Source: Candidatus Tectimicrobiota bacterium
GTDB lineage: Bacteria > JACPUC01
Length of the DNA stretch: 64,000 bases
Direction: 5' to 3'
Assembly: GCA_016192455.1 (NCBI GenBank)
Contig: JACPUC010000018.1
Span: 1 to 64,000 of the forward strand
Shown here: positions 29,784 to 31,731 of the stretch, in pieces
Position numbering within the stretch: the stretch's first letter is position 1
Layout of the letters: the number at the start of each line of letters is the position of its first letter
Program-made: the position numbers and the translations under genes
The notes under the pieces: generated by a model
Databases searched by the model: none
The model's input: only the letters and a program-made list of their open reading frames with translations
What the model was told of the DNA's origin: nothing

Positions 29784-29910
29784 GGCGACTTTTCGAGTGG
29801 CGTTCGCGCGGGAGCGAGGCACCTCTCCTCTTTAGGGTCTTTCTCGCGTTCCACGTGTAGGCCATTTCGGTGGCGTTAGTATGGGTACTCAGATGGAGGG
29901 GGATGCACCA

Positions 29911-30837
29911 ATGGCTGGTCACTGGAAAGAAGTCGTCAGGCTCCGTTTTAAGGGCAGTCGATTTCGGGACCACGCATTAGACATTGGCGCCATTACCGAA
30001 CTGAGCCGCTTTCAGAAGATGATAGCGGAGACTGCGAAGACTCTCTGGCGTGAAAGTCATCCCGAACGAGAACGGCTCCCAAAGCATTTCGAAGAACGCA
30101 CGAGCCTTTGCCTACGCAGAATCGCAGAAGGAAGTGCCGTGGCTCCCTTGGAGGTATACATCGGAGGACCTACGCAAGAAGAATTATTTGAACAGGATAC
30201 TGCCGAAACCGAAGTTGAAGAAGCGATCGAGTTAGCCCATAAGGTCTTCCATGCCGCACAAATAGATGAACCACTACCCCCGATATTCCCGAAGACATTA
30301 ATTCCAGAATACGAAAACTTTGGGCAGGGACTTGAGGATGATGAGGAAATCGAGATGATGATAGATGAGAAGGAACCAGCCCATGTAACTCCTACATCAC
30401 GCTCCCGCTTAGCTGCGTTGGTTGATGTTCCACACGAAAATCAGGTTGATGTAACAGGCGAGGTACTAGAGGCCGATGTCAGACAAGGACGGTTCCAGGT
30501 ATGGTTGGATGAGAAGACTGGCATTTCTGCGGTATTCTCTCCGGAGCAGGAAGACCATGTAACAGGTGCACTTCGGGACCACAATACATTGCGACTTCAA
30601 ATCATTGGCGAAGGGGAGTTTTCTCCACAAGGCAAACTTTTGCGTATCACAAAAACGGAAAGGTTGTTACTTAAGACTCTGGCAGATGCGGAAGATGCTT
30701 ACGATACCACCGTCAAGCCTATAGAAGATGTCCTGACCGAGTTAGCCCGAGAGGTTCCCCAGGAAGATTGGGATAAACTTCCGCCTGACCTTACAGACAA
30801 CCTCGATCACTACCTTTACGGAACACCTAAGCGATGA
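29911..30837 (+). CDS. long antitoxin-like partner of a PIN-domain protein
   Basis: 308 residues in an AT-richer segment than all neighbours. The N-terminal about 100 residues contain AITELSRFQKMIAETAKTLW and LPKHFEERTSLCLRRI. The middle is acidic (IPEYENFGQGLEDDEEIEMM), followed by a beta-rich part (VTGEVLEADVRQGRFQVWLD) that could be an OB- or barrel-like fold. The last about 38 residues (IEDVLTELAREVPQEDWDKL, then DNLDHYLYG) look like the C-terminal tail of short antitoxins that accompany PIN toxins. The ATG at 29911 with GGAGGGGG eight bases upstream is preferred to 29881. It overlaps the PIN gene by an ATGA junction. I know no named function for the long N-terminal part; the antitoxin role is inferred. 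Confidence 0.7.
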   Translation: MAGHWKEVVRLRFKGSRFRDHALDIGAITELSRFQKMIAETAKTLWRESHPERERLPKHFEERTSLCLRRIAEGSAVAPLEVYIGGPTQEELFEQDTAETEVEEAIELAHKVFHAAQIDEPLPPIFPKTLIPEYENFGQGLEDDEEIEMMIDEKEPAHVTPTSRSRLAALVDVPHENQVDVTGEVLEADVRQGRFQVWLDEKTGISAVFSPEQEDHVTGALRDHNTLRLQIIGEGEFSPQGKLLRITKTERLLLKTLADAEDAYDTTVKPIEDVLTELAREVPQEDWDKLPPDLTDNLDHYLYGTPKR

Positions 30838-31256
30838 GAACGGTCTTTGTCGACACACTTTACTGGGTTGCTAGAGTTCGACCGTGCGACCCTTGGGGAG
30901 AAGCTGCACGGCTGGCCAAATCGTCACTTGGGGCAGTTCGCCTCTTAACTACAGACGAAGTTCTAACCGAGTTCTTAACCGCTCTCTCGAGGGGAGGTGA
31001 ACATCTGCGACGTCAAGCAGTAAGAATGGTACGAAGTATTCTTGACGATCCAAACGTTCAGGTCACTCCTCAGTCTCGAAATTCATTTCTTCGAGGCATT
31101 GAACTGTACGAACAACGTCCCGACAAAGAATACAGCTTAACCGATTGTATTTCAATGAGTACGATGAGGTCTCTATCAGTTGCTGAGGTGTTGACAAACG
31201 ATACCCATTTCAACCAAGAAGGATTTCGAGTACTAATAACCAAGCAAGAATCCTAA
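30834..31256 (+). CDS. PIN-domain ribonuclease, VapC-like toxin
   Basis: 140 residues forming a PIN domain with the four acidic positions expected at its metal site: D7 in VFVDTLYW, E46 in VLTEFLTAL, D104 in YSLTDCISM and D123 in VLTNDTHFNQ. PIN toxins of toxin-antitoxin pairs cut tRNA, rRNA or mRNA. The start overlaps the stop of the preceding gene (ATGA), the classic order antitoxin then toxin with translational coupling. AT-rich codon use matches its partner and not the flanking genes, which points to recent joint acquisition. The target is unknown. Confidence 0.88.
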   Translation: MRTVFVDTLYWVARVRPCDPWGEAARLAKSSLGAVRLLTTDEVLTEFLTALSRGGEHLRRQAVRMVRSILDDPNVQVTPQSRNSFLRGIELYEQRPDKEYSLTDCISMSTMRSLSVAEVLTNDTHFNQEGFRVLITKQES

Positions 31257-31364: not shown

Positions 31365-31445
31365 GTGCCCTGCCGCAATCTGCATGGCTTCGCGGGCGTG
31401 GTCAAGCATGTGCCGCAGCCGCACCGCATCATCATGCCGCGACAT
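31365..31445 (-). pseudogene. N-terminal remnant of a HEPN (HepT-like) toxin
   Basis: Downstream of and overlapping the MNT gene by 14 bases, an ATG at 31445 opens MSRHDDAVRLRHMLDHAREA, which matches the start of HepT-type HEPN proteins. After about 28 residues the similarity stops and the frame runs into unrelated sequence (stop at 31233) that adjoins the AT-richer PIN island. The catalytic R-x4-6-H motif of HEPN ribonucleases lies in the missing part, so this toxin is dead. Confidence 0.6.
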
Positions 31446-31731
31446 ACAGGTCCTCCGCCTCTTCCAAAATCTCATCGCGAAAGTAAGGGCTGAGGAAGCC
31501 AGGCGTGTTGAGGTCTACCTTGCGTCCCAGAATCTCCGAGAGTTCGCGTTCGATGGCAAAGAACCGCAGACCTACCCTCGTCTGCGGCTCGAACTCGACG
31601 AGCATGTCAACATCGCTGTCGGGCCGGAAGTCCTCACGCAGGACGGAGCCGAACAATGCCAGGCGCCGGACGCGGTGCCGTTGGCAGAAATCGCGGATGG
31701 CTTCCGCCGGGATGTGAATGCGCGCGCTCAC
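31432..31731 (-). CDS. MNT-domain nucleotidyltransferase (MntA-like antitoxin), orphan
   Basis: 99 residues of the minimal nucleotidyltransferase type. The signature G-S-x10-D-x-D is complete: G28 S29 in LFGSVLRED and D40, D42 in PDSDVDMLVEF. A further acidic residue follows in LGRKVDLNTP. In HEPN-MNT modules this protein AMPylates and silences the HepT toxin. Its partner, which should follow directly, is cut to a stub (31365-31445), so this gene is now an orphan or serves another target. GC content is like the surrounding genome, unlike the neighbouring PIN pair. Confidence 0.88.
   Translation of the reverse strand: MSARIHIPAEAIRDFCQRHRVRRLALFGSVLREDFRPDSDVDMLVEFEPQTRVGLRFFAIERELSEILGRKVDLNTPGFLSPYFRDEILEEAEDLYVAA

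What the first reader, a model, noticed from the sequence alone, without database searches (positions are those of the whole stretch)
29911..31256. AT-rich island with a PIN toxin and a very long antitoxin-like partner
The two genes overlap by ATGA in antitoxin-toxin order, both are visibly AT-richer than everything around them, and the PIN acidic residues D7, E46, D104 and D123 are intact. The partner has about 308 residues instead of the 70-100 usual for antitoxins. Only its last about 38 residues (EVPQEDWDKLP, DNLDHYLYG) resemble antitoxin tails of PIN systems. The rest is an uncharacterised helical plus beta-rich part. It could be a nucleic-acid-binding or sensor domain that ties toxin release to a signal, which would make this a non-standard toxin-antitoxin or defence module.
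Basis: partly seen in the sequence, partly recalled or inferred. Interest (0 to 1): 0.66.

Follow-up and report, generated by a model that had tools for sequence, protein, structure and literature searches.

The report
Ribonuclease toxin on swappable defence scaffold
This is a two-gene toxin-antitoxin module in which a ribonuclease (PIN) toxin appears to be held by a short tail grafted onto the scaffold of an uncharacterised candidate anti-phage system; relatives put the same scaffold on other effectors and the same tail on other carriers, and phages have picked up the tail by itself.

Summary
A 308-aa gene (29911-30837) overlaps a 140-aa PIN gene (30834-31256) by ATGA, in a 48.6% GC island within a 66.8% GC window. 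The PIN model matches VapC20, the 23S rRNA sarcin-ricin-loop ribonuclease (TM 0.85), and the four acidic residues line up.

The "uncharacterised" part has a known relative. Residues 6-252 match PDC-M32A (E 2e-45), half of PADLOC's unstudied phage-defence candidate PDC-M32. The canonical partner PDC-M32B and the C-terminal third of M32A are both absent. A 45-aa tail and a PIN gene stand in their place.

Among 17 relatives, C-terminus and next gene always match: tail with PIN (5), C-domain with M32B (10), a third C-terminus with a different PIN (2). The tail also occurs on short cyanobacterial antitoxin-like proteins (22 of 30 with PIN directly downstream) and on a MAD5/type-I specificity-like subunit followed by PIN. 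Microcystis phages carry the tail alone.

Best reading: the tail neutralises or docks the PIN toxin, the scaffold decides when to release it, and M32B is the equivalent effector of PDC-M32. The trigger, the neutralisation and the scaffold's fold are not shown; the AlphaFold model of the long protein failed (pLDDT 39).

The parts
29895..29902 (+). ribosome-binding-site-like GGAGGGGG, 8-11 bases upstream of ATG 29911
   Evidence: sequence read directly
29911..30837 (+). 308-aa scaffold/antitoxin-like protein (PDC-M32A-like scaffold plus PIN-type tail)
   Evidence: ORF; PADLOC PDC-M32A E 1.8e-45 over residues 6-252; conserved in L005, L010, L011, L013
29911..30390 (+). N-terminal part of the scaffold, residues 1-160, mainly helical by (low-confidence) prediction
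   Evidence: alignments A1 and A3; secondary structure of a poor model
30403..30675 (+). middle part of the scaffold, residues 165-255, beta-rich by (low-confidence) prediction; in L002/L016 it occurs with the tail and without the N-terminal part
30700..30834 (+). C-terminal tail, residues 264-308: predicted PIN-neutralising or docking segment (…EVPQEDWDKLPPDLTDNLDHYLYGTPKR)
   Evidence: same element alone in 70-130-aa proteins followed by PIN in 22 of 30 loci; on a MAD5-like protein with PIN; alone in Microcystis phages
30834..31256 (+). 140-aa PIN-domain ribonuclease toxin, VapC20-like, acidic residues D7, E46, D104, D123
   Evidence: Pfam PF01850; alignment to VapC20 E 9e-13; AlphaFold model and Foldseek

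Best explanation
A stand-alone two-gene toxin-antitoxin-type module. The PIN protein is a VapC20-like ribonuclease that stops translation by cutting ribosomal RNA or tRNA. The upstream protein keeps it silent through its last ~45 residues, which form a transferable PIN-binding tail. The first ~255 residues are the scaffold of PDC-M32A and set the condition under which the toxin is released, most likely a phage-related disturbance. The same scaffold controls another effector, PDC-M32B, when it carries another C-terminal domain. Shown here: architecture, homology, one-to-one match of C-terminus and effector, PIN fold and acidic residues. Inferred: toxicity, neutralisation by the tail, RNA target, sensing and defence.
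For: Scaffold = PDC-M32A. C-terminus and downstream gene match in 17 of 17 scaffold proteins: tail-PIN 5, C-domain-M32B 10, third C-terminus-other PIN 2. Tail-only proteins have the PIN gene 22 of 30 times within -4 to +12 bases; N-terminal parts of plasmid-borne tail proteins differ from one another. Tail fused to a MAD5/specificity-subunit-like protein, followed by PIN and preceded by an N6-methyltransferase gene. Microcystis phages carry the tail ORF, 94% identical in protein and 91.5% in DNA, without PIN, with 9 synonymous to 4 non-synonymous differences from the host copy (dN/dS 0.09, binomial P 1e-4). PIN fold VapC20. One PDC-M32 pair sits between hsdM and hsdS.
Against: No toxicity or neutralisation data and no complex model. 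The model of the long protein failed (pLDDT 39), so the scaffold's fold and possible ligand are unknown. The window copy and the four same-type loci lie among ordinary genes, not in evident defence islands. PDC-M32 itself is only a candidate; the single paper found merely lists it. The five PIN-type scaffolds resemble each other more than the M32B-type (33-51% against 23-26%), so the effector swap may have happened only once.
Confidence: 0.58

Rival explanations
1. Ordinary VapBC-type system with an unusually large antitoxin: the scaffold is only a dimerising, operator-binding part that autoregulates the operon, and release follows proteolysis as in other type II systems. No sensing of phage.
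For: Gene order and ATGA overlap are typical. Relatives use small, varied N-terminal parts on the same tail. Loci are stand-alone in housekeeping surroundings.
Against: A ~255-residue scaffold is far larger than needed for operator binding, shows no known DNA-binding family, and keeps its sequence while the effector changes.
Confidence: 0.28
2. The tail recruits rather than inhibits: the scaffold (or, in cyanobacteria, the specificity subunit) recognises a target and delivers an already active PIN nuclease to it.
For: Tail on a MAD5/specificity-like protein next to a methyltransferase, with no separate HsdR gene seen in the stretches inspected.
Against: Most tail proteins are 70-130 aa with nothing else to target. 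Phages keep the tail alone, which fits an inhibitor better.
Confidence: 0.1
3. Decaying or inactive remnant of a transferred island.
For: Foreign composition; a relative, L013, has N in place of the first catalytic D.
Against: Both window genes are open, with all four acidic residues; the pair is conserved at 50-58% identity in two other lineages.
Confidence: 0.04

Closest known systems
PDC-M32 (PADLOC phage-defence candidate, PDC-M32A + PDC-M32B)
   Same: Residues 6-252 match positions 4-250 of PDC-M32A (E 1.8e-45); two-gene layout with abutting or overlapping genes
   Different: No C-terminal third (256-375) and no PDC-M32B; tail and PIN gene instead; M32B is not PIN-like by Pfam or profile comparison
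VapBC type II toxin-antitoxin systems; nearest solved toxin VapC20 (5wz4, 5wzf)
   Same: PIN toxin with the acidic residues, TM 0.85 to VapC20; antitoxin gene first, ATGA overlap
   Different: Antitoxin 308 aa with a PDC-M32A scaffold and no recognised DNA-binding family
Cyanobacterial tail-PIN pairs
   Same: Same tail and same PIN family, genes touching
   Different: N-terminal part short (70-130 aa) or a MAD5/specificity-like protein of about 550 aa
PrrC guarded by EcoprrI (PMC2610378 abstract)
   Same: Works-like comparison only: a translation-stopping RNase silenced by another protein complex and freed by phage interference
   Different: No sequence relation tested; in the window no restriction-modification gene is adjacent
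MADS (MAD5 specificity-like subunit)
   Same: A tail-bearing relative in cyanobacteria matches NF047740 MAD5 (E 4.5e-93, below its curated cut-off) and PADLOC mad5
   Different: The window has no such gene; this concerns relatives of the tail only

Membership tests
PDC-M32 | A component homologous along its whole length (~375 aa) | tested here: not met
   only residues 6-252 match profile positions 4-250 of 375
PDC-M32 | B component (PDC-M32B) encoded next to it | tested here: not met
   the neighbour is a PIN protein; no PADLOC hit
PDC-M32 | anti-phage activity | not testable with these tools
   needs phage assays; none found in the literature searched
VapBC (type II TA with PIN toxin) | PIN-domain toxin with conserved acidic residues | tested here: met
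   PF01850; D7, E46, D104, D123; VapC20-like model
VapBC (type II TA with PIN toxin) | upstream antitoxin gene in a tight operon | tested here: met
   ATGA overlap; conserved in relatives
VapBC (type II TA with PIN toxin) | small antitoxin with a recognised DNA-binding N-terminal domain | tested here: not met
   308 aa; no Pfam or NCBIfam domain
VapBC (type II TA with PIN toxin) | C-terminal part of the antitoxin binds and inhibits the toxin | tested here: inconclusive
   only genetic linkage and phage capture of the tail; no complex model
VapC20 | cleaves the sarcin-ricin loop of 23S rRNA | not testable with these tools
   fold and sequence similarity only
MADS / type I restriction-modification with PIN | methyltransferase and specificity genes in the locus | tested here: not met
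   window neighbours are SnoaL-like, UbiD, nucleotidyltransferase, radical SAM, SAM-HAT

The most novel reading that the evidence does not exclude
PDC-M32A is a general infection-sensing scaffold that accepts interchangeable toxins (PIN, M32B, another PIN) through matched C-terminal docking segments, and the PIN-docking tail is in turn a plug-in adapter used on other carriers, including a MAD5/restriction-specificity-like subunit, that phages counter by carrying the tail alone as a decoy antitoxin.
Probability: 0.33. Interest if true: 0.82.

Novelty: new variant of a known kind. Interest (0 to 1): 0.6.

Why it matters
It gives an uncharacterised defence candidate (PDC-M32) a concrete, testable division of labour: scaffold as controller, C-terminus as toxin holder, M32B as effector. 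It names a short portable tail as the likely antitoxin of a widespread VapC20-like PIN family, and predicts a phage-encoded inhibitor in Microcystis phages that can be tested directly.

Tried and rejected
A PDB hit for the scaffold (9hnh, E 3e-5) consists of weak repeats with individual E-values of 0.31 or worse in a repetitive chain and was rejected as chance. TIGR04255 as a relative of the scaffold: profile comparison negative (probability 0.1). M32B as a divergent PIN: negative (probability 0.2). The C-domain as a relative of the tail: negative (probability 0.4). Flanking repeats of the island: nothing convincing. The window's own genome holds no second copy of the long protein. A truncated HEPN gene beside the nucleotidyltransferase gene was suspected by eye, but Pfam finds nothing. 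No paper was found on PDC-M32 beyond a listing, none on TIGR04255, and none reporting an antitoxin encoded by phage Ma-LMM01.

Full report
Observation. They form the only strongly AT-rich stretch of the window (48.6% against 66.8% GC; GC3 0.46 and 0.39 against 0.84-0.93 in the housekeeping neighbours). The neighbours are ordinary: CNNM/CBS transporter, UbiD, SnoaL-like protein, a small nucleotidyltransferase, a radical SAM protein with UPF0004, and a SAM hydroxide adenosyltransferase. The window lies in a 4.46-Mb assembly with no other member of its phylum held; the long protein occurs once.

The toxin. The 140-aa protein is a PIN domain (PF01850, E 1.7e-7). A profile of it and its relatives finds VapC20, the sarcin-ricin-loop ribonuclease, as the only good match among solved structures (E 9e-13), with the acidic residues aligned. 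An AlphaFold model (pLDDT 86) matches VapC20 with TM 0.81-0.85. That it cuts the sarcin-ricin loop is an inference from this similarity.

The long protein. Pfam and NCBIfam have nothing. PADLOC recognises residues 6-252 as PDC-M32A with E 1.8e-45. PDC-M32 is a two-gene phage-defence candidate; the only paper found that mentions it lists it in Sinorhizobium prophages. Canonical members are about 370-400 aa and are followed by PDC-M32B, a protein of about 130-180 aa without a Pfam family. The window protein keeps the first two thirds and replaces the last third with a 45-residue tail; M32B is replaced by the PIN protein.

The match between C-terminus and effector. Seventeen proteins with the scaffold were collected. 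Five end in the tail and are followed by the PIN gene (window, L005, L010, L011, L013). Ten end in the M32A C-domain and are followed by M32B (L006, L007, L009, L012, L024, L066-L070; in L067 the scaffold and C-domain are in two overlapping frames). Two distant ones (L071, L072; profile comparison probability 94, E 1e-7 over 223 columns) have a third C-terminus and a PIN protein that the profile of the window's PIN family does not pick up. There was no exception. The profiles were built from some of these loci, so membership is partly by construction, but the pairing of C-terminus with effector is not. The five PIN-type scaffolds are closer to each other than to the rest, so the swap may be one event.

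The tail by itself. In the phylum of G047 (cyanobacteria, inferred from the plasmid hits), 46 of 386 genomes have a match to the tail, and none of the listed matches reaches the N-terminal part of the scaffold. Of 30 loci read, 22 have a PIN gene of the same family directly downstream, at -4 to +12 bases. The tail proteins are mostly 70-130 aa, and the N-terminal parts of those on plasmids differ from one another. In four genomes the tail ends a protein of about 550 aa that matches the MAD5/type I specificity subunit (NF047740 E 4.5e-93, below the curated cut-off; PF01420), followed by PIN and preceded by an N6 methyltransferase gene with an HSDR_N-like start. In L002/L016 the middle part of the scaffold and the tail, separated by a TGA, precede a PIN gene without the N-terminal part.

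Phages. Microcystis phages Ma-LMM01 and MaMV-DL01/DL02 carry a 61-aa ORF (unannotated in LMM01) that is 94% identical to the tail of the MAD5-like protein of L034, and no PIN gene of that family is found in the phage collection. Between phage and host there are 9 synonymous and 4 non-synonymous differences (dN/dS 0.09; binomial P 1e-4), so the peptide has been kept, though part of that constraint belongs to the host lineage. A viral contig (L064) has the tail followed by a PIN gene with an in-frame stop. A phage that keeps only the neutralising segment of a host toxin is the simplest reading, and it supports the tail being the antitoxin.

M32B side. The M32A C-domain also occurs without the scaffold, downstream of TIGR04255-family proteins and followed by proteins related to M32B (profile probability 97-98). 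In L009/L060 the PDC-M32 pair lies between hsdM and hsdS of a type I system with an hsdR-like gene nearby. By analogy M32B is the effector and the C-domain its holder; this is inference.

Mechanism. Most likely the tail wraps or docks the PIN toxin and keeps it silent, and the scaffold sets the release condition. The defence label rests on PADLOC's candidate status, the hsdM-hsdS setting of one relative, the MAD5-like carrier of the tail and the phage-borne tail. For the window copy itself there is no defence island. A plain autoregulated toxin-antitoxin system remains the main rival. The known PrrC case, an RNase silenced by a linked restriction enzyme and freed by a phage factor (abstract of PMC2610378), shows that such an arrangement can work as defence, but no relation to it is claimed.

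Limits. Structure jobs accept only the window's own sequences and loci of certain tools, so the long protein had two sequences and a failed model. No complex could be predicted. The genome searches sampled 1151 genomes, from few phyla, without names.

Noticed in passing
L008:3058-3243 and L073:~2501-2690 (Microcystis phages MaMV-DL02 and Ma-LMM01; NC_008562.1 19605-19766, minus strand, unannotated): A 61-aa phage ORF, 94% identical to the PIN-docking tail of a cyanobacterial MAD5-like protein, without a PIN gene: a candidate phage-borne antitoxin. It lies directly upstream of an anti-repressor (Bro-N/ANT) gene.
   Followed up: partly
L056, L057, L058, L059: Three-gene cyanobacterial loci: N6 methyltransferase with HSDR_N-like start, MAD5/specificity-like protein with PIN tail, PIN ribonuclease; no separate HsdR gene seen in the stretches read.
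   Followed up: partly
L015, L018, L020, L021, L022: TIGR04255-like protein, then a protein with the PDC-M32A C-domain, then an M32B-like protein: the M32 effector half on a different partner.
   Followed up: partly
L071:586-1970, L072:1216-2582: Distant scaffold proteins (306-308 aa) with another C-terminus, overlapping a PIN gene not picked up by the profile of the window's PIN family: a third effector pairing.
   Followed up: partly
L060:5306-10506: A PDC-M32A/B pair between hsdM and hsdS of a type I restriction system.
   Followed up: no
window 31432-31731, minus strand: Small nucleotidyltransferase (PF01909, MNT type) just downstream of the island, with no detectable HEPN partner; L061:10628-10960 also has one next to the same PIN pair.
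   Followed up: partly
L013:2378-2809: The PIN relative has N where the first catalytic D stands in the others, so it may be inactive.
   Followed up: no
L002:1500-1923, minus strand: A TGA separates the middle scaffold part from the tail, upstream of an intact PIN gene: split or decayed antitoxin gene.
   Followed up: no
L049: Two tail ORFs in tandem before one PIN gene.
   Followed up: no
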